Positions 7,022-23,218 of a DNA stretch of 64,000 nt are shown here, one piece after another. Both the position numbers and the translations under genes were made by a program. Origin of the DNA: Angustibacter sp. Root456 (GTDB taxonomy: Bacteria; Actinomycetota; Actinomycetes; Actinomycetales; Angustibacteraceae); contig NZ_LMER01000001.1 of the NCBI RefSeq assembly GCF_001426435.1, positions 170,616 through 234,615 of the forward strand. The letters run 5' to 3'. Below the pieces are notes generated by a model, which was not told where the DNA came from, did no database searches, and saw only the letters and a list, made by a program, of their open reading frames with translations. The stretch's first letter is position 1. Each line of letters starts with the position of its first letter.

Positions 7022-7462
7022 TCAGTCCGTCGTCGGCTCGAGCACGAACACCGGGATCAGGCGGTCGGTCTTGGTCTGGTACTCGGCGTAGTCCGGCCAC
7101 ACCTGCACCGCGCGGTCCCACCAAAGGGCCCGCTCGTCGCCGTCGAGCTCGCGCGCGACGTAGTCGCGGCGATCGGGGCCGTCCTGCAGCTCGACGTGCG
7201 AGTCGGCGACGAGGTTGTGGTACCAGACGGGGTGCTCGGGTGCGCCCCCCTTGGAGGCGACGACCGCGTAGCGGCCCTCGTGCTCGACCCGCATCAGCGG
7301 GGTCTTGCGCAGCAGCCCGGACTTCGCGCCGCGGCTGGTGAGCACGATGATCGGCACGTCCTGCATCGTGTTGGCCTCGGCGCCGCCCGACCGCTCGAAC
7401 TGCTCGACCTGGTCGCGCACCCAGGGCGCGGGACTGGGCTCGTAGGTTCCCTGAAGTGGCAT
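7022..7462 (-). CDS. Nitroreductase/deazaflavin-dependent oxidoreductase family protein (Ddn-like, F420 type)
   Basis: A 146-residue split beta-barrel protein of the family that includes the mycobacterial F420H2-dependent nitroreductase Ddn. Diagnostic segments are [38 protein letters not shown] and [18 protein letters not shown], and the SG-x-x-RKTPL sequence contributes to the F420 phosphate site in relatives. Such enzymes reduce quinones, nitro compounds or coumarins using F420H2. The specific substrate is unknown. Its presence suggests that the organism makes cofactor F420. It diverges from glgX with 63 bp between starts. Confidence 0.85.
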
Positions 7463-7495
7463 GACGACGACAACACGCGTCCCCTGTCAGCGATT

Positions 7496-7510
7496 CCGGT
7501 GCACCGGTGC
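7496..7510. promoter_or_regulatory. Nested palindromes upstream of glgX
   Basis: CCGGTGCACCGG (7496-7507) is a perfect 12-bp palindrome, and GCACCGGTGC (7501-7510) is a second perfect palindrome sharing half of it. They lie in the 63-bp region between the F420-type gene and glgX, 15 bp before the glgX start. This could be a regulator site, but short GC palindromes are common by chance in DNA of this composition. Confidence 0.35.
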
Positions 7511-7525
7511 GGGAGACTGTCGCGA

Positions 7526-9625
7526 GTGACGCCACGCCCCCTCCCGGAGGAACCGCCTGCCCTTGGAGTGACGCTGCGCGACGGCGGCGCGGACGTCGCG
7601 GTCTACGCCGAGCACGCTGACGCCGTCGAGGTCTGCGTCGGCGAGCGCCGGGTCGAGCTGGGGGCGCACCTGCACGGCGTGCACTACGGCTTCGTGCCCG
7701 ACCTGCACGACGGCGACCGCTACGGGCTGCGGGTGCACGGCCCCTGGGACCCCGCGCGCGGGCTGCGGCACAACCCCGCCAAGCTGCTGCTCGACCCGTA
7801 CGCTCGCGCCCTGGCCGGCGAGGTCGACTGGCGCCCCGAGGTCTTCGGGCACCGTGTCGACGAGCGCCTCACGGGCGACCCGGAGGTGCGCGACGACCGC
7901 GACTCCGCGCCGTTCGTGCCGCGCGGTGTCGTCGTCGGTGACGGGTTCGACTGGGGCGACGACCGCCGGCCGCGGGTGCCGTGGTCGCAGACGGTGGTGT
8001 ACGAGGCGCACGTGCGAGGCCTCACGCGCCGCCTGCCCGGTGTGCCGGAGCACCTGCGCGGCACGTACGCCGGTCTCGCCCACCCCGCGACGGTCGAGCA
8101 CCTGACCTCACTCGGCGTCACGACCGTCGAGCTGCTGCCGATCCACGCCTTCACGCACGAGCCGGCGCTGGTGCGCCGCGGTGCGCGCAACTACTGGGGC
8201 TACAACACGCTGTCGTTCTTCGCGCCCCACCCCTCCTACGCCAGCACCAGCGACCCACGCGGGGTGCTCGACGAGGTCAAGGGCATGGTGCGCCTGCTGC
8301 ACCAGGCCGGACTCGAGGTGGTGCTCGACGTCGTCTACAACCACACCTGCGAGCAGGGCCGCGACGGCGCGCTGCTGTCGTGGCGTGGCCTGGACAACCC
8401 CGCGTACTACCGGCTGGACGACCACGGCCGGGACGTCGACGTCACCGGGTGCGGCAACACCATGAACTTCTGCCACCCGCGCACGGTGCAGCTGGCGCTG
8501 GACTCGCTGCGGTACTGGGCCGAGCAGGTGCACGTCGACGGGTTCCGCTTCGACCTCGCCACGGCTCTCGCCCGGGGCGCCGACGACGCCTACGACTGCG
8601 ACCACCCGTTCCTCGTGGCGCTGCGCACCGATCCGGTGCTCTCGCGGCTGAAGCTCGTCGCCGAGCCGTGGGACGTCGGACCGCACGGCTGGCGCACCGG
8701 CCAGTTCCCGCCCCCCATGGCGGAGTGGAACGACCGCTTCCGTGACACCGCGCGGTCGTTCTGGCTGGCCGACGCCGCCCGCGAGCTGCGCGGCGAACCG
8801 GGCCACGGCGTGCGTGAGCTCGCCACCCGGCTCTCGGGCTCGCAGGACCTGTTCGGACGCGGCGACCGCGGCCCGCTGGCGTCGGTGAACTACGTCGCAG
8901 CGCACGACGGCTTCACCGTTGCCGACACCACCGCCTACGAGCGCAAGCACAACGAGGGCAACGGCGAGGGCAACCTCGACGGGCACGACGACAACCGGTC
9001 GTGGAACCACGGCGTCGAGGGCGAGACCCACGACCCGGTCGTGCTCGCCGGCCGTCGCCGTTCGATCCGCAACCTGCTCGGGACGCTGCTGCTCTCGACG
9101 GGCGTGCCGATGCTCGCGGCGGGTGACGAGCTCGGCCGCACCCAGCACGGCAACAACAACGCCTACAACCGCGACGACGAGGTGTCGTGGCTCGACTGGG
9201 ACCTGCAGCCGTGGCAGCACGACCTGCTCGCCACCACGACCTACCTGCTGCGGGTGCGGCGCGAGCACCCGGTGCTGCGGCAGCGGCAGTTCTTCGGCCT
9301 CCGGCCGCCGCACGCCGACGGCACGGTCGACCTGGGCTGGTTCGGCGCCGACGGGCGCCCCATGGACGACGGCCGCTGGCACGACCCGCACGCGCGCGTG
9401 CTGCAGGCGTTCCTGCACGGCTCGCCGGTCGGCGGTGACTCGCTGCTGCTGGTGCTGTGCGGTGCGCCGCACGACACCGACGTCGCGCTGCCCGGGCCGC
9501 CTTGGGCGGGCGGCTACGAGCTGGTGTGGGACAGCGCCGACGAGCGGCCGACGCCGCGCGCCGACGTCATGACCGGCGTCCAGCGCGTGCGCGCTCTCAG
9601 CCTGCGCCTCTACCGCGCCCGCTGA
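7526..9625 (+). CDS. glgX: Glycogen debranching enzyme GlgX (GH13 isoamylase type)
   Basis: A 699-residue enzyme that hydrolyses alpha-1,6 branches of phosphorylase-limit glycogen. An N-terminal CBM48-like beta domain (about 1-130) precedes the (beta/alpha)8 barrel. The three GH13 acids are present: nucleophile D343 in GFRFDLATAL, acid/base E380 in VAEPWDVG and D461 in AAHDGFT. The length matches bacterial GlgX (about 660-720). Start GTG 7526 has GGGAG ten bases upstream; the longer open frame overlaps a gene on the other strand. It works with glgP, to which it is convergent. GlgX of Streptomyces has been reported to bind cyclic di-GMP, relevant because a GGDEF gene lies 10 kb away. The stop codon is inside a terminator stem. 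Confidence 0.95.
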   Translation: MTPRPLPEEPPALGVTLRDGGADVAVYAEHADAVEVCVGERRVELGAHLHGVHYGFVPDLHDGDRYGLRVHGPWDPARGLRHNPAKLLLDPYARALAGEVDWRPEVFGHRVDERLTGDPEVRDDRDSAPFVPRGVVVGDGFDWGDDRRPRVPWSQTVVYEAHVRGLTRRLPGVPEHLRGTYAGLAHPATVEHLTSLGVTTVELLPIHAFTHEPALVRRGARNYWGYNTLSFFAPHPSYASTSDPRGVLDEVKGMVRLLHQAGLEVVLDVVYNHTCEQGRDGALLSWRGLDNPAYYRLDDHGRDVDVTGCGNTMNFCHPRTVQLALDSLRYWAEQVHVDGFRFDLATALARGADDAYDCDHPFLVALRTDPVLSRLKLVAEPWDVGPHGWRTGQFPPPMAEWNDRFRDTARSFWLADAARELRGEPGHGVRELATRLSGSQDLFGRGDRGPLASVNYVAAHDGFTVADTTAYERKHNEGNGEGNLDGHDDNRSWNHGVEGETHDPVVLAGRRRSIRNLLGTLLLSTGVPMLAAGDELGRTQHGNNNAYNRDDEVSWLDWDLQPWQHDLLATTTYLLRVRREHPVLRQRQFFGLRPPHADGTVDLGWFGADGRPMDDGRWHDPHARVLQAFLHGSPVGGDSLLLVLCGAPHDTDVALPGPPWAGGYELVWDSADERPTPRADVMTGVQRVRALSLRLYRAR

Positions 9626-9661: not shown

Positions 9662-12247
9662 TCAGGCGTTGACGACGAGCCCCAGCTCGGCGGGCGAGGC
9701 CAGCCCCTGGTGGCGCGGCAGCACGCGAACGGTGTACCCGAACGCGCCGGTGCGGGCGAGCTTGATGTCGCCCTCGAAGCGGTGCCTGCCGCCCTCGTAG
9801 GTCTCAGCGTGCTGCAGCGTCACCACGCGGGTGTCGGTCAGCTCGTCCTGGAACGACACGCGCCCGTGCACGACCTGCACCTGCACGTCGTCGGCCGCCA
9901 GCCCGTCGAGGGAGACGAAGGCCTGCACCGACAGCACGTCACCGACCTGCGGCGAGTCGCTGACGCCGGAGGACTCGACGTGGTCGACCCTCACCGAGCC
10001 CCACGCCTCGCGCACCCGCGACTTCCAGGCCGCGAGGTCGCGCGCGCCCGGGAAGCCGGGCCCGTTGAGCGCCCAACCGGCCCGCGCGGCCGGCGTGTAG
10101 AGCTGCTCGACGTAGTCCCGGACCATGCGCGAGGCCAGCACCTTCGGCCCGAGTGAACGGAAGGTGTGGCTGACCATCTCCATCCAGCGGCCCGGCACGC
10201 CGGCCTCGTCACGGTCGTAGAACCGCGGCGCCACCTGGCCCTCGATGAGGTCGTAGAGCGCGGCGGCCTCGAGGTCGTCGCGGTGGTCGGGGTCCTCGAC
10301 GCCGTCGGCGGTGGGGATCGCCCAGCCGTTCTCGCCGTCGAACCACTCGTCCCACCAGCCGTCGAGGATCGACAGGTTGAGTCCGCCGTTCAGCGCGGAC
10401 TTCATGCCCGACGTCCCGCAGGCCTCGAAGGGTCGCAAGGGGTTGTTGAGCCAGACGTCGCAGCCCGGGTAGAGGTACTGCGCCATGGCGATGTCGTAGT
10501 TCGGCAGGAACACGATGCGGTGCCGGACGGCGGGGTCGTCGGCGAACCGCACCATCTGCTGGATCAGCGACTTGCCCTTGTCGTCGGCGGGGTGGGACTT
10601 GCCGGCGATCACGAGCTGGATGGGCCGCTCGGGGTGCAGCAGCATGGCCTTGAGCCGGTCGGGGTCGCGCAGCATGAGCGTGAGCCGCTTGTACGTCGGC
10701 ACGCGGCGCGCGAAACCGATGGTGAGCACGTCGGGGTCGAGCACGGAGTCGACCCAGCCGAGCTCGGCGCTGCTGGCGCCGCGCCGCAGCCACGAGGCGC
10801 GCAGCCGGCGGCGCGCCTCCTGCACCAGCTGGGCGCGCATCTCGCGGCGCACGGCCCAGATCTCGCCGCGCGGCACGAGCGGGACGTCGTCCCACACGCC
10901 GGCGTCGGTGCCGAGCCGGTGGCCCAGGTGCTTCTCGGCCAGCTCGAAGACGCGATGGTCGACCCACGTGGGCGCGTGCACGCCGTTGGTGATCGAGGTG
11001 ATCGGCACCTCGCGGTCGTCGAAGCCCGGCCACAGACCGTCGAACATGTGCCGGCTGACGTGGCCGTGCAGCTCCGAGACGCCGTTGGCGCGGCCGCCGA
11101 GGCGCAGGCCCATGACCGCCATGTTGAAGACGCCGGCCTCGCCGCCGGGGTAGGTCTCGGCGCCGAGATCCAGGATGCGCTCGACGGGCACTCCCGCCAT
11201 GGCGTTGTCGCCGCCGAAGTAGGTCTCGATCTGGTCGGCGCCGAAGCGGTCGATGCCTGCGGGCACCGGGGTGTGGGTGGTGAACACCGTCGCGGCGCGA
11301 ACGGCCTCGAGCGCCTCGTCGAAGCCCATGCCCTCGGACGCCACGAGCTCGCGGATGCGCTCCAGGCCCAAGAAGCCCGCGTGGCCCTCGTTGGCGTGGT
11401 AGACGTCGGGGGCCGGCGCGCCGGTGAGCCGCGACCACAGGCGCAGGGCGCGCACGCCGCCGATGCCGAGCAGCATCTCCTGCTGCAGGCGGTGCTCGCC
11501 CGAGCCGCCGTAGAGGCGGTCGGTGACGCCGCGCAGCGCCTCGTCGTTGGCCTGGGTGTCGGAGTCGAGCAGCAGCAGGGGCACCCGGCCGACCTGCGCC
11601 TTCCACACGTGCGCGACGAGCCGGCGGCCGCCGGGCAGGTCGACGACGACCTCGCACGGCGTGCCGTCGTCCTCGCGCAGCAGCGAGAGCGGGAGGCCGT
11701 CAGGGTCGAGCACCGGGTAGGTCTCCTGCTGCCAGCCCTCGCGCGACAGCGACTGCTTGAAGTAGCCGGTCTTGTAGAACAGGCCGACCCCGACGATGGG
11801 AACGCCCAGGTCAGAGGCCGCCTTGAGGTGGTCTCCGGCGAGGATGCCGAGGCCGCCGGAGTACTGCGGCAGCACGGCGGTGATGCCGAACTCGGCGGAG
11901 AAGTAGGCGATCGAGCGCGGCAGGCCCTCGCCGCCGACGTCGGACTGCGCCTGGCTCTGGAACCAGCGCGGCTGCTCGAGGTACTCGTTCAGGTCGGCGG
12001 CCGCAGCCTCCACCGTGGCGACGAAGGTGGGGTCGTCGGCGAGCTCGGCGAGGCGCTCGGGCGGCAGGTCTCCCAGCAGCGCGACCGGGTCGTGGCGCAC
12101 GGCCTGCCATCGCTGGGGGTCCAGCCCGGCGAACAGCTCGCGCGTGGGCGCGTGCCAGGACCACCGCAGGTTGCTGGCGAGCTCGCCCAGGGCCGCGATG
12201 GGCTCAGGCAGGACGGTGCGGACACTGAATCGACGGATTGCTCTCAC
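9662..12247 (-). CDS. glgP: Alpha-glucan (glycogen) phosphorylase, short-N-terminal GT35 type
   Basis: An 861-residue pyridoxal-phosphate enzyme that releases glucose-1-phosphate from glycogen chain ends. The N-terminal DUF3417-like region (1-100; LASNLRWSWHAPT) identifies the Thermotoga/mycobacterial form of GlgP. The PLP lysine is K616 in the CGTSGMKSALNGG motif. HANEGHAGFLGLERIREL and GKSHPADDKGK are further family blocks. GTG 12247 has TACGCT (12256-12261) eight bases upstream and no Shine-Dalgarno, so it is probably leaderless. The gene diverges from glgE and shares a 181-bp control region with it. Glucose-1-phosphate made here would feed the pgm product nearby. Confidence 0.93.
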   Translation of the reverse strand: MRAIRRFSVRTVLPEPIAALGELASNLRWSWHAPTRELFAGLDPQRWQAVRHDPVALLGDLPPERLAELADDPTFVATVEAAAADLNEYLEQPRWFQSQAQSDVGGEGLPRSIAYFSAEFGITAVLPQYSGGLGILAGDHLKAASDLGVPIVGVGLFYKTGYFKQSLSREGWQQETYPVLDPDGLPLSLLREDDGTPCEVVVDLPGGRRLVAHVWKAQVGRVPLLLLDSDTQANDEALRGVTDRLYGGSGEHRLQQEMLLGIGGVRALRLWSRLTGAPAPDVYHANEGHAGFLGLERIRELVASEGMGFDEALEAVRAATVFTTHTPVPAGIDRFGADQIETYFGGDNAMAGVPVERILDLGAETYPGGEAGVFNMAVMGLRLGGRANGVSELHGHVSRHMFDGLWPGFDDREVPITSITNGVHAPTWVDHRVFELAEKHLGHRLGTDAGVWDDVPLVPRGEIWAVRREMRAQLVQEARRRLRASWLRRGASSAELGWVDSVLDPDVLTIGFARRVPTYKRLTLMLRDPDRLKAMLLHPERPIQLVIAGKSHPADDKGKSLIQQMVRFADDPAVRHRIVFLPNYDIAMAQYLYPGCDVWLNNPLRPFEACGTSGMKSALNGGLNLSILDGWWDEWFDGENGWAIPTADGVEDPDHRDDLEAAALYDLIEGQVAPRFYDRDEAGVPGRWMEMVSHTFRSLGPKVLASRMVRDYVEQLYTPAARAGWALNGPGFPGARDLAAWKSRVREAWGSVRVDHVESSGVSDSPQVGDVLSVQAFVSLDGLAADDVQVQVVHGRVSFQDELTDTRVVTLQHAETYEGGRHRFEGDIKLARTGAFGYTVRVLPRHQGLASPAELGLVVNA

Positions 12248-12328: not shown

Positions 12329-12415
12329 GCCCGCATCGACCCGGCAGCTCCTGCGCCGGCCCCCGCGCCGTGCCGGGGCGCCCCGCTCGAGCGTGCAGGG
12401 CCCCGCCGTCCTCGG

Positions 12416-12421
12416 TAGCGT
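12416..12421 (+). promoter_or_regulatory. -10 element of glgE (leaderless)
   Basis: TAGCGT lies seven bases before GTG 12429, placing the transcription start at or next to the initiation codon. No Shine-Dalgarno sequence is seen, which supports this start for glgE. Confidence 0.6.
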
Positions 12422-12428
12422 CGGCGCG

Positions 12429-14417
12429 GTGATCGGACGTATCCCCGTGATGTCGGTGACCCCCAGCGTGGACTGCGGGCGCTGGCCCGCCCGAGCCGTC
12501 GTGGGCGAGGCCGTGCCGGTGCGCGCGACGGTCTTCCGCGAGGGCCACGACGCCGTGGCCGCGAGCGTCGTGCTCGTCGACCCCGACGGCGTCGAGCAGC
12601 CGCCGCGACGGATGGCGCTGCTCGAGGCCGGCCTCGACCTGTGGGGCGCCGACGTCGTGCCCGACCGCGAGGGTGACTGGACCTTTCGCGTCGAGGGCTG
12701 GTCGGATCCCTACGCCACGTGGGAGCACGATGCGGTCATCAAGGTGGCCGCGGACGTCGACACCGAGCTGATGCTCACCGAGGGCGCGCTGTTGCTCGAG
12801 CGGGCGGCGGCGACGAAGGGGCGGCCCCCCGCGCACGTCCAGGCCCTGCGTGACGCTGTCACCGGGCTGCGCGACACCACCCGGCCGGCCCAGGCCCGAC
12901 TGGCAGCCGGTACCTCCCCCGCTGTCCATGCCGCCTTGTCCGCCGCCCCGGTGCGCGAGATGGTCACCGCGAGCGCCGACCACGTGATCCGCGTGCAGCG
13001 TGAGCGGGCGCTCGTGGGCGCCTGGTACGAGTTCTTCCCCCGCTCGGAGGGCGCGACCTACGACCCGGCGACCGAGTCGTGGACGACGGGCACGCTGCGC
13101 ACCGCAGCGGGGCGCCTGCAGGCCATCGCCGACATGGGTTTCGACGTCGCCTACGTGACGCCCGTGCACCCGATCGGCACGACGAACCGCAAGGGCCGCA
13201 ACAACACGCTCGACCCGCGCCCCGAGGACCCGGGCTCGCCGTACGCCATCGGCTCGCCGGACGGCGGCCACGACGCGATCGAGCCGAGCCTCGGCACCTT
13301 CGAGGACTGGGACGCCTTCGTCGCCGAGGCGCGCCGCCTGGGCCTGGAGGTGGCTCTCGACCTCGCGCTGCAGTGCTCCCCCGACCACCCGTGGGTCACC
13401 GAGCACCCGGAGTGGTTCACCACCCGCGCCGACGGCTCGATCGCCTACGCAGAGAACCCGCCCAAGAAGTACCAGGACATCTACCCGCTCAACTTCGACA
13501 ACGACCCCGAGGGCATCTACGCGGCGGTGCTGCGCGTCGTCCTGAAGTGGGTCGACCACGGGGTGACGCTGTTCCGCGTCGACAACCCGCACACCAAGCC
13601 GGTCGAGTTCTGGGAGTGGCTGATCGCCAAGGTCAACGCCGAGCACCCGGAGGTCATCTTCCTGGCCGAGGCGTTCACGCGGCCGGCGATGATGCACACG
13701 CTCGCCAAGGTCGGGTTCCACCAGTCGTACACGTACTTCGCCTGGCGCAACACCAAGGAGGAGCTCACCGAGTACCTCACCGAGCTGTCGGGCGAGTCCG
13801 CCGACTACATGCGGCCCAGCTTCTGGCCCACCACGCACGACATCCTCACGCCGTACATGCAGTACGGCGGCCGCCCGGCCTTCCGGCTGCGCGCCGCCCT
13901 CGCCGCGACGATGGTGCCGACGTACGGCATCTACAGCGGCTACGAGCTCGTCGAGAACGTCGCCCGGCCCGGCGTCGAGGAGCAGATCGACAACGAGAAG
14001 TACGAGTTCAAGCCGCGCGACTGGGACGCCGCGCTCGCGGACGGCTCGAGCCTGGCGCCCTGGCTCACCCGGCTCAACGAGATCCGCCGCAACCACCCTG
14101 CGCTGCAACGGCTGCGGAACATCACCTTCCACCCCGTGGACGACGACGCGACGATCTGCTTCAGCAAGCGCCTCACCGCGGCGCAGTCGCCCACCGGGCG
14201 CGAGGACACCGTCATCGTCATCGCGAACCTCGACCCCCACGGCGTGCGCGAGACCATGGTGCACCTCGACATGCCGGCACTGGGCCTCGGCTACGACGAC
14301 GGGTTCGTCGCGCACGACCTGGTCACCGGCCAGACCTGGCACTGGGGCGAGCACGTCTACGTGCGGCTCGACCCGCACACTGAACCGGTGCACATCGTCC
14401 ACGTGAGAGGGGTCTGA
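12429..14417 (+). CDS. glgE: Alpha-1,4-glucan:maltose-1-phosphate maltosyltransferase GlgE (GH13_3)
   Basis: A 662-residue enzyme that extends alpha-1,4-glucans with maltosyl units from maltose-1-phosphate. The nucleophile D385 ([10 protein letters not shown]), acid/base E414 (FLAEAFTRP) and D471 (TTHDILTP) are each nine positions before the Streptomyces GlgE1 residues D394/E423/D480. The N-terminal beta-sandwich [17 protein letters not shown] matches mycobacterial GlgE, which supports GTG 12429 as the start. An ATG at 12450 (residue 8) is possible but less likely. The gene is the first of the glgE-treS-mak::glgB run; treS begins two bases after its stop. It drives glycogen synthesis from trehalose without GlgC/GlgA, neither of which is in the window. 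Confidence 0.95.
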
Positions 14418-14419
14418 CG

Positions 14420-16121
14420 GTGGAGGGTCTGAACCTCAGCGGTCCGGGTCTGCGCCATGACCCCCACTGGCACAAGAAGGCCGTGTTCTACGAGGTGCTG
14501 GTGCGCGCCTTCTCCGACTCCAACGGCTCGGGCTCCGGCGACTTCACGGGCCTGATCAGCAAGCTGGACTACCTGCAGTGGCTCGGTGTCGACTGCCTGT
14601 GGCTGCCGCCGTTCTACGCCTCCCCGTTGCGTGACGGCGGCTACGACGTCGCCGACTACTGCTCGGTGCTGCCGGAGTTCGGCACGCTGCCCGACTTCAC
14701 CGAGCTGGTGAGCCAGGCGCACGCGCGCGGCCTGCGGGTGATCGTCGACCTGGTGATGAACCACACCAGCGACCAGCACCCGTGGTTCCAGGCGAGCCGC
14801 TCGGACCCTGAGGGCCCGTACGGCGACTTCTACGTCTGGAGCGACACCGACGACCGGTACCAGGACGCCCGGATCATCTTCGTCGACACCGAGACGAGCA
14901 ACTGGACGTTCGACCCCGTGCGCCGGCAGTTCTTCTGGCACCGCTTCTTCAGCCACCAGCCCGACCTGAACTTCGAGAACCCTGCGGTGCAGGAGGCGAT
15001 GTTCGACGTCGTGCGCTTCTGGATGGACCTCGGCATCGACGGCTTCCGGCTCGACGCCGTGCCGTACCTGTTCGAGGACGAGGGCACCAACTGCGAGAAC
15101 CTGCCCGCCACGCACGACTTCCTGCGCAGGCTGCGGGCGATGGTCGACGACGAGTACCCGGGCCGGATCATGCTGGCCGAGGCCAACCAGTGGCCCAAGG
15201 ACGTCGTCGAGTACTTCGGCACGGACGACGAACCCGAGTGCCACATGGCGTTCCACTTCCCGGTCATGCCGCGCATCTACTACGCGCTGCGCGACGAGTC
15301 GGCCCGCCCGATCATCGACATCCTGGCCGACACGCCGGACCTGCCGGTGCACGGCCAGTGGGGGACGTTCCTGCGCAACCACGACGAGCTGACGCTCGAG
15401 ATGGTGACCACCGAGGAGCGCGCCGCCATGTACGGCTGGTACGCCCCCGATCCGCGCATGCGCGCCAACATCGGGATCCGACGTCGCCTGGCCACGCTGC
15501 TCGACAACTCCCGAGCCGAGATCGAGCTGATCAACGCCTTGCTGCTGTCGTTGCCCGGAAGCCCCTGCCTGTACTACGGCGACGAGATCGGCATGGGTGA
15601 CAACATCTGGCTCGACGACCGCGACGCCGTGCGTACCCCCATGCAGTGGACGCCCGACCGCAACGCGGGGTTCTCGTCGGCCGATCCGGGCAAGCTGTAC
15701 CTGCCGACGATCCAGTCGCTGGTGCACCACTACAACACCGTGAACGTCGAGGCCCAGCTGGCGACGCGCTCGTCGCTGCTGCACTGGACGCGCGGCATGC
15801 TCGCGCTGCGCAAGCGCCACCCCGTGTTCGGGGTGGGACGTTACGTGCCCGTCGACGCCGACAACGACGCCGTGCTGGCCTTCCTGCGCGTGATCGACGA
15901 CGAGTCGACCGGTGAGGCGCCGGAGGCGGTGCTGTGCGTCAACAACCTGGCGCAGACCCCCCAGGCAGCGACGCTGCGCCTACCCGACAACGCCGGCGCC
16001 GGCCTGGAGGACCTCTTCGGTGGTTCCGGCTTCCCGTCGGTGTCGCCGGAGGGAACGCTCACGCTGTCGTTGGGGTCGCGTGACTTCTTCTGGCTGCGCC
16101 TGAAGGCCTCGGAGGCCGACC

Positions 16122-16129
<8 letters not shown>
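14420..16129 (+). CDS. treS: Trehalose synthase TreS (maltose alpha-D-glucosyltransferase)
   Basis: A 569-residue GH13_16 enzyme that interconverts trehalose and maltose. The barrel acids are D212 ([10 protein letters not shown]), E254 (MLAEANQW) and D322 ([11 protein letters not shown]). The N-terminal [27 protein letters not shown] block is typical of actinobacterial TreS. The C-terminal beta domain ends at 569, so there is no fused maltokinase as in some TreS-Pep2 proteins; here the kinase is fused to GlgB instead. The GTG start lies two bases after the glgE stop, with GAGAGGGG upstream. Its end overlaps the maltokinase start by eight bases, so translation is coupled. Confidence 0.95.
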
Positions 16130-19877
<3,748 letters not shown>

Positions 19878-19939: not shown

Positions 19940-21541
19940 GTGGCGAGTCCTCCTGCCCTCACGCCCTCGTCGCGCCCGGCGTCGGCTGAACAGGCCCTGC
20001 GCGAGCTCGTGCTCCTGCCGGAGGCGCGGTACGAGGAGATGCTCGCGATCCCCGCGCAGTTCGCGATGGACGCTCTCAGCGGCCACAGCGCGTCGCTGTC
20101 GCGTTGGGAGCGTGACCGCGGCCTGTTGCGCACCCTCGTCAACGTGGGTGACCTGAGCCCGGCCGAGACGCGGTTCCCGCCAGAAGAGGTCTACGAGGCC
20201 GCCACCGACACCGCGATCGCCCGCGTGCTCGTCGGCCAGCCCATGCTCTACCGCCGCAGCGACCCGGCGCTCGACGAGCACGGGCGGGGCCTGCTCGACT
20301 TCTCGGTCAAGGACTCGGCGCTCAGCCTGCCCGTGTGGGTCGACGAGCGCCTGTGGGGTGAGCTCTGGGTCAGTCGGGACGACGAGGCGCTGGACCTCGA
20401 GGCGCTGGCCGCCGGTGAGAGCGTCGTCGCGGAGGTGGCCGGCATGGTCGCCATCGCGGAACGGTTGCAGCACATGGCCCGCATGGCGTTCGAGGACCCT
20501 CTCACCGGCGTCGGCAACCGGCGCGCTCTCGATGACGCGCTGCGCGAGCTGCTCGCCGACGGCGGCCCCGGCGTCACGGTCGTCATGTGCGACATCGACA
20601 ACCTCAAGGACCTCAACGACGAGCACGGGCACGTCATGGGCGACCGGGCCATCGTGGCCACGGCGGACGCCCTCGCGACGACGGCGAACGCCGTCCCCGA
20701 CACCGTCACCGTGCGGCTGGGCGGCGACGAGTTCGCCGTCCTGCTCGTCGGCGAGCAGCGGGCACGGGCCATCGCGATCGTGGAGGCCGCGGCCCGGCTG
20801 CTGTCCGCCAGCGACCTGCCGGTGGAGGTCAGCTGCGGCATCGCCGTCGTCCCGTCCGGCATCAGCGGCCGCGACGCCGTGGCAGCCGCCGACGCGGCGC
20901 AGTACGCCGCCAAGACGCGCGGCGCCCTGCTGGTGGTGGCCTCCGACCTGCCCGACATCGCCCCCGAGCGTCGCCGGAACCGGCGGCGCAACAGCGACCG
21001 CCCACCGACCGCCCTCAGCACCGCGCAGGCCGTCTGCGAGGTGGTGACCACGCTCGCCGACCAGCTCAGCGACGCCCCCGACACCCCGGGTGGCCGGCTG
21101 CGGTGGCTGGGTGAGCGCCTGCTGACTCCGCTCGACCTGCAGGAGTGGTCGCTCAGCCGCGTCGACCTGGTGGGCGACCGGATGCTCAGCACCGACTCGC
21201 TGGGACTGCGACAGACCCCCCTGTCGAGCGTCCCGGCGCACGACCGGCAGGTCGACAAGCGCTTCCGGCTCGATGACTTCCCGCTGAGCCAGGCGGCGGT
21301 CGAGTGCGACCAGTGGTTCCGCGTCGCGGTCGACGACCCGGAAGCCGACCCCCACGAGCGCGCCGTGCTGCACGAGATGGGCATGCACCACGTCGTCGCC
21401 CTCGGCTGCCGCGACGGGGTCACCGGGTGGCTGCTGGAGCTCTACGGCCGCGACAGCGGAGCCGACCTGCGGGCGGTCGGGAGCGTGCTCGCTCTCGGGG
21501 CCGCTGGCCTGCTCTTCCGGCCGTTCGTGCCCGTGGCCTGA
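19940..21541 (+). CDS. GAF-GGDEF-GAF diguanylate cyclase
   Basis: A 533-residue cytoplasmic protein with no transmembrane segment. An N-terminal GAF-like sensor (about 20-175) is followed by a GGDEF domain (about 180-335) with DPLTGVGNRRALDDAL, the magnesium-binding CDIDNLKDLND and an intact GGDEF active-site motif at 261-265. It should make cyclic di-GMP from two GTP. The RxxD inhibitory site normally found five residues before GGDEF is absent (VPDT there). The C-terminal 170 residues resemble a second GAF domain. GTG 19940 has AGGAG five bases upstream. It sits between the glycogen operon and pgm on the same strand, suggesting a signalling link to carbon storage. Confidence 0.88.
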   Translation: MASPPALTPSSRPASAEQALRELVLLPEARYEEMLAIPAQFAMDALSGHSASLSRWERDRGLLRTLVNVGDLSPAETRFPPEEVYEAATDTAIARVLVGQPMLYRRSDPALDEHGRGLLDFSVKDSALSLPVWVDERLWGELWVSRDDEALDLEALAAGESVVAEVAGMVAIAERLQHMARMAFEDPLTGVGNRRALDDALRELLADGGPGVTVVMCDIDNLKDLNDEHGHVMGDRAIVATADALATTANAVPDTVTVRLGGDEFAVLLVGEQRARAIAIVEAAARLLSASDLPVEVSCGIAVVPSGISGRDAVAAADAAQYAAKTRGALLVVASDLPDIAPERRRNRRRNSDRPPTALSTAQAVCEVVTTLADQLSDAPDTPGGRLRWLGERLLTPLDLQEWSLSRVDLVGDRMLSTDSLGLRQTPLSSVPAHDRQVDKRFRLDDFPLSQAAVECDQWFRVAVDDPEADPHERAVLHEMGMHHVVALGCRDGVTGWLLELYGRDSGADLRAVGSVLALGAAGLLFRPFVPVA

Positions 21542-21583
21542 CACGCGGATGTGCCCTGGCGGCGAATCGGCCAGGATGGACTC

Positions 21584-23217
<1,634 letters not shown>

Positions 23218-23218
<1 letters not shown>

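What the first reader, a model, noticed from the sequence alone, without database searches (positions are those of the whole stretch)
19940..21541. GGDEF protein without inhibitory site placed inside the glycogen/phosphoglucomutase cluster
The cyclase has an intact GGDEF (261-265), no RxxD site, and GAF-like domains on both sides. GlgX from Streptomyces has been reported to be activated by cyclic di-GMP. A cyclase next to glgX, glgP and pgm may therefore control glycogen breakdown locally.
Basis: partly seen in the sequence, partly recalled or inferred. Interest (0 to 1): 0.65.

Follow-up and report, generated by a model that had tools for sequence, protein, structure and literature searches.

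The report
Signalling cyclase inside GlgE glycogen operon
A bacterial signalling enzyme that probably makes cyclic di-GMP has its gene inserted in a glycogen-building operon of one actinobacterial family; the placement is real and inherited, but the neighbouring debranching enzyme it was said to switch on lacks the known docking site, so the finding is modest.

Summary
Window 19940-21541 (+) encodes a 533-aa GAF-GGDEF-GAF protein with GGDEF at 261-265 and no RxxD inhibitory site. The context needs correcting: the gene lies in a GlgE-pathway (synthesis) operon, glgE-treS-pep2/glgB-DGC-pgm; glgX (same strand) and glgP (opposite strand) lie outside it.

The gene order is not confined to this genome: it is shared with a congener, and glgB-DGC also with a second genus of the family. 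In a third genus pgm directly follows glgB, so the cyclase is a lineage-specific insertion (or was lost there).

Across 63 GlgE clusters of the order, GGDEF genes are no commoner than genome density predicts (5 seen, at least 6.4 expected). None of 40 further clusters of the phylum has one inside the operon.

The proposed mechanism is not supported: the neighbouring GlgX has lost 10 of 11 c-di-GMP contact positions of Streptomyces venezuelae GlgX but keeps its catalytic residues; the genome's second GlgX has lost 5.

Nearest relatives are EAL- or HD-GYP-GAF-GGDEF enzymes; this is the cyclase half alone. Most likely it is made with the operon and feeds a pool shared with 36 other GGDEF domains, target unknown; a passenger gene is a serious rival.

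The parts
19940..21541 (+). Diguanylate cyclase gene, 533 aa: GAF (about 16-175), GGDEF (184-328), GAF (about 361-523); GGDEF motif 261-265, no RxxD I-site
12429..14417 (+). glgE, maltosyltransferase (ORF 12393-14417; likely GTG start at 12429)
12416..12421 (+). TAGCGT, 7 bases before the likely glgE start, conserved in G001 and G002; -10-like element of a leaderless promoter (inference)
14420..16129 (+). treS, maltose alpha-D-glucosyltransferase (trehalose synthase)
16122..19877 (+). pep2-glgB fusion: maltokinase plus branching enzyme, overlapping treS
21584..23218 (+). pgm, phosphoglucomutase (ORF opens at GTG 21551; conserved start is ATG 21584)
21568..21577 (+). CGGCCAGGAT, 6 bases before the pgm start, conserved in relatives with (G001) and without (G003) the cyclase; -10-like, so pgm may have its own promoter (inference)
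9662..12247 (-). glgP, alpha-glucan phosphorylase, divergent from glgE
7196..9625 (+). glgX, debranching enzyme (homology from ORF residue 119 on); lacks the known c-di-GMP site

Best explanation
A stand-alone GAF-GGDEF-GAF diguanylate cyclase, related to c-di-GMP enzymes that carry EAL or HD-GYP in front of the same module, was inserted between pep2/glgB and pgm of a GlgE-pathway operon in one actinobacterial family and kept there. It is probably transcribed with glgE-treS-pep2/glgB, responds to an unknown small ligand through its GAF domains, and adds c-di-GMP to the cell's pool when the operon is expressed, coupling alpha-glucan/trehalose status to c-di-GMP signalling. It does not act through the known c-di-GMP site of GlgX, which this GlgX lacks. 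Shown: domain anatomy, gene order, shared position in three genomes, absence in a fourth, loss of the GlgX site. Inferred: cyclase activity, co-transcription, ligand sensing, direction of signal flow.
For: GGDEF catalytic residues intact and shared with homologs: metal Asp, ND, GH..GD, GGDEF, K325. Same position with near-equal glgB-DGC gaps (about 62 and 61 bases) in the window and G001 (62% identical); glgB-DGC also in G002 (46%, contig ends in the gene). Purifying selection: dN/dS about 0.47 against G001, weaker than for the enzymes (0.13-0.28). EAL/HD-GYP-GAF-GGDEF relatives. One of 37 GGDEF and 19 EAL matches in the genome, so a shared pool is likely. Precedent: a GGDEF-EAL gene in the Actinoplanes maltase operon (PMC6828939).
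Against: GGDEF genes are not enriched at GlgE clusters. The gene is absent in G003, where pgm follows glgB directly. A phosphate-contacting Arg equivalent to PleD R446 is missing (KTRGA), though this is family-wide with R327 invariant. Co-transcription was not measured. Two of the three genomes are congeners.
Confidence: 0.5

Rival explanations
1. Passenger: the cyclase landed in the operon by chance and works as one more general cyclase with no functional link to glycogen.
For: In 63 GlgE-centred regions of the order 5 GGDEF genes (3 independent placements) were seen against at least 6.4 expected from genome density. Outside the order none of 40 regions has a GGDEF gene inside glgE-glgB. Homologs in other families of the order and in other classes are not beside glg genes. 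It evolves faster than the neighbouring enzymes.
Against: Kept in place in two genera at 46-62% identity with intact frame and, where the gene is complete, intact motif.
Confidence: 0.35
2. One reading: c-di-GMP from this cyclase activates the neighbouring GlgX and so drives glycogen breakdown locally.
For: S. venezuelae GlgX is activated by c-di-GMP (PMC9530166), and glgX lies in the same gene neighbourhood.
Against: 10 of 11 site positions lost in this GlgX, and the site is also lost in its orthologs; the genome's second GlgX has lost R49, R56, Q433, R438 and S629. The S. venezuelae paralog and E. coli GlgX, which lack the motif, do not bind (PMC9530166). glgX is outside the operon.
Confidence: 0.06
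3. The GGDEF domain is not a working cyclase but a GTP or c-di-GMP sensor, or a scaffold that regulates a neighbouring enzyme by contact.
For: Low GGDEF profile score (third lowest of 37 in the genome); PleD R446 equivalent missing; GAF domains on both sides.
Against: GGDEF motif and the metal, guanine and lysine positions are intact and invariant in homologs.
Confidence: 0.09

Closest known systems
Streptomyces venezuelae GlgX / c-di-GMP system (PMC9530166)
   [quoted passage not shown] glgX nearby
   Different: The GlgX here lacks the c-di-GMP site; the cyclase sits in the synthesis operon
Actinoplanes aml operon: amlR-amlE-ACSP50_2473, a GGDEF-EAL protein (PMC6828939)
   Same: c-di-GMP enzyme gene in an alpha-glucoside operon; target unknown
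   Different: There a GGDEF-EAL protein with a transmembrane segment beside a maltase; here a GAF-GGDEF-GAF protein in a GlgE operon
EAL- or HD-GYP-GAF-GGDEF(-GAF) proteins of Nitriliruptoraceae, Solirubrobacteraceae and another family of the order (L042, L044, L045, L073)
   Same: Same GAF-GGDEF module at 33-40% identity; C-terminal GAF shared with the Nitriliruptoraceae proteins
   Different: They carry a phosphodiesterase-type domain (EAL or HD-GYP) in front; the window protein does not
GlgE pathway operon (glgE-treS-pep2-glgB)
   Same: Complete set of pathway genes in the usual order
   Different: A cyclase inserted between glgB and pgm

Membership tests
Diguanylate cyclase (GGDEF, PF00990) | GGDEF domain over the curated cut-off with an intact GG[DE]EF motif | tested here: met
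   96 bits against cut-off 23.8; GGDEF 261-265
Diguanylate cyclase (GGDEF, PF00990) | Catalytic residues beside the motif (metal Asp, ND, phosphate-binding Lys/Arg) | tested here: inconclusive
   D218, N226, D227, K325 present and invariant; PleD R446 equivalent absent
Diguanylate cyclase (GGDEF, PF00990) | Makes c-di-GMP from GTP | not testable with these tools
   needs an enzyme assay
I-site regulated cyclase | RxxD five residues before GGDEF | tested here: not met
   VPDT in the window, none in four homologs
c-di-GMP activated GlgX (S. venezuelae type) | ExR(X)6R motif plus R438 and R579 contacts | tested here: not met
   window GlgX 1 of 11 positions kept; second GlgX 6 of 11 kept with R49P, R56W, R438K
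GlgE pathway operon | glgE, treS, pep2, glgB adjacent and collinear | tested here: met
EAL/HD-GYP-GAF-GGDEF dual enzymes | EAL or HD-GYP domain in the same protein | tested here: not met
   533 aa with no such domain; present in homologs

The most novel reading that the evidence does not exclude
The cyclase is a dedicated sensor of a GlgE-pathway or related metabolite whose c-di-GMP directly controls a synthesis enzyme of its own operon (TreS, Pep2-GlgB, GlgE or Pgm) through a site not yet described: c-di-GMP control of glycogen synthesis rather than breakdown.
Probability: 0.08. Interest if true: 0.65.

Novelty: new member of a known kind. Interest (0 to 1): 0.3.

Why it matters
c-di-GMP has one proven direct target in bacterial glycogen metabolism, GlgX of Streptomyces. 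A cyclase kept inside a glycogen-synthesis operon offers a concrete gene for asking whether the link also exists on the synthesis side. It also shows that the GlgX mechanism cannot be carried over to every actinobacterial GlgX by name: here the site is gone.

Tried and rejected
GlgX as the direct target: rejected on residues. General association of GGDEF genes with GlgE clusters: tested in 63 clusters of the order and 40 of the rest of the phylum, no excess. A first GGDEF scan used an HMM contaminated by antisense seeds, because loci from minus-strand matches are not turned; it was rebuilt and rerun, and only the rerun is used for GGDEF. Homologs of the cyclase beside glg genes elsewhere: none found. 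Rfam and tRNA scans of the window gave nothing. The promoter/terminator scan gave nothing above shuffles. Literature searches for GlgE or glycogen genes plus diguanylate cyclase gave no report of this gene arrangement in the papers listed.

Full report
Observation. The ORF at 19940-21541 (+) encodes 533 aa with a GGDEF domain (Pfam E = 2.7e-27), GGDEF at residues 261-265 and VPDT in place of the RxxD inhibitory site. An AlphaFold2 model built on eight sequences gives GAF-GGDEF-GAF (pLDDT 79). The C-terminal domain, which has no Pfam match, is predicted as a GAF fold and matches GAF structures in the PDB.

Context. The gene order is glgX (+), glgP (-), glgE (+), treS (+), pep2/glgB fusion (+), cyclase (+), pgm (+), then ybbN, a lipoprotein and a methylmalonyl-CoA mutase subunit on the other strand. 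The cyclase is therefore in the GlgE synthesis operon; glgX and glgP are beyond glgE. A conserved TAGCGT-n7-GTG in front of glgE (window, G001, G002) and a conserved CGGCCAGGAT-n6-[A/G]TG in front of pgm (window, G001, G003) look like leaderless promoters. If so, pgm has its own start, and the cyclase, which has a Shine-Dalgarno sequence instead, would be read from the glg transcript. This is inference.

Conservation. In G001 (same genus) the whole order is kept and the cyclase is 62% identical. In G002 (another genus of the family) glgB is followed by the ortholog (46% over 180 residues, then the contig ends). In G003 (a third genus) pgm follows glgB directly, as in two genomes of another family of the order (G019, G121), so the cyclase is most simply an insertion within this family. 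Homologs of the N-terminal domain in 11 other genomes of the order, and those found in named genomes of other classes, are not beside glg genes within the stretches held. The gene is under purifying selection but evolves faster than the enzymes around it.

Is the placement remarkable? I fetched 60 further GlgE clusters of the order and scanned them for GGDEF with a rebuilt profile. Besides the three family members, G002 has a second GGDEF gene (PAS-GAF-GGDEF, 666 aa) directly behind glgP, and G148 of another family has a LacI-type sugar-binding-GGDEF protein between pep2 and glgB. From the number of GGDEF domains per genome (capped for the richest genomes, so a lower bound) at least 6.4 such genes would be expected in these regions by chance, 2.5 if the core genes' own space is excluded; 5 were seen, in three independent placements. 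In 40 more clusters from the rest of the phylum no GGDEF gene lies inside glgE-glgB. There is no general attraction between cyclases and GlgE operons.

The GlgX hypothesis. S. venezuelae GlgX binds c-di-GMP through R31, E47, R49, T51, R56, Q433, G436, R438, R579 and S629, with D52 orienting R438, and the E47A-R49A and R438A-R579A mutants do not bind saturably (PMC9530166). Aligned to that protein (PDB 7u39), the window GlgX keeps only E47, while D342, E378 and D450 of the active site are all kept; the G001 and G002 orthologs have lost the site too. The genome's second GlgX (G000:C14, 69% identical to the Streptomyces protein) keeps six positions but has R49P, R56W, Q433E, R438K and S629P. The direct GlgX mechanism is not supported; binding at some other site was not tested.

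Origin. The same GAF-GGDEF module occurs in proteins with EAL (Nitriliruptoraceae L042, another family of the order L073) or HD-GYP (Solirubrobacteraceae L044, L045) in front, and the C-terminal GAF is shared with the Nitriliruptoraceae proteins. The window protein is the cyclase half on its own. All full-length homologs compared lack the I-site and the PleD R446 equivalent, so these are traits of the subfamily, not decay in this copy.

Verdict. A correctly spotted cyclase in an unusual, inherited place, with a proposed mechanism that does not fit the sequence. The most likely role is production of c-di-GMP in step with the GlgE operon into a pool shared with 36 other GGDEF domains; a passenger gene cannot be excluded. 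Precedent for c-di-GMP genes in alpha-glucan operons exists in Actinoplanes (PMC6828939).

Noticed in passing
L109:2973-5261 (-), genome G148: A LacI-type sugar-binding domain fused to GGDEF lies between pep2 and glgB of another GlgE cluster: an independent and perhaps more telling case of a sugar sensor-cyclase in the pathway.
   Followed up: partly
genome G078 (e.g. C194:13572-19107, C155:28340-32442): A strongly expanded paralogous family of LacI-type sugar-binding-GGDEF proteins, dozens of matches including tandem copies.
   Followed up: no
L070:10656-12653 (+), genome G002: A PAS-GAF-GGDEF protein directly behind glgP in a relative of the same family: a second cyclase in the same glycogen cluster.
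   Followed up: partly
window 12416-12429 and 21568-21584: Conserved -10-like elements six to seven bases before the glgE and pgm starts suggest leaderless transcripts.
   Followed up: partly
window 7196-7520: The first 108 residues of the glgX ORF have a 58% identical counterpart in G001, but in a different frame from GlgX there, so the true glgX start is probably near 7500 and the stretch may belong to something else.
   Followed up: no
G445 C1, G403 C2 and G468 C8: In three genomes of one genus elsewhere in the phylum a relative of the C-terminal GAF domain lies 39-94 kb from glgE; not adjacent.
   Followed up: no
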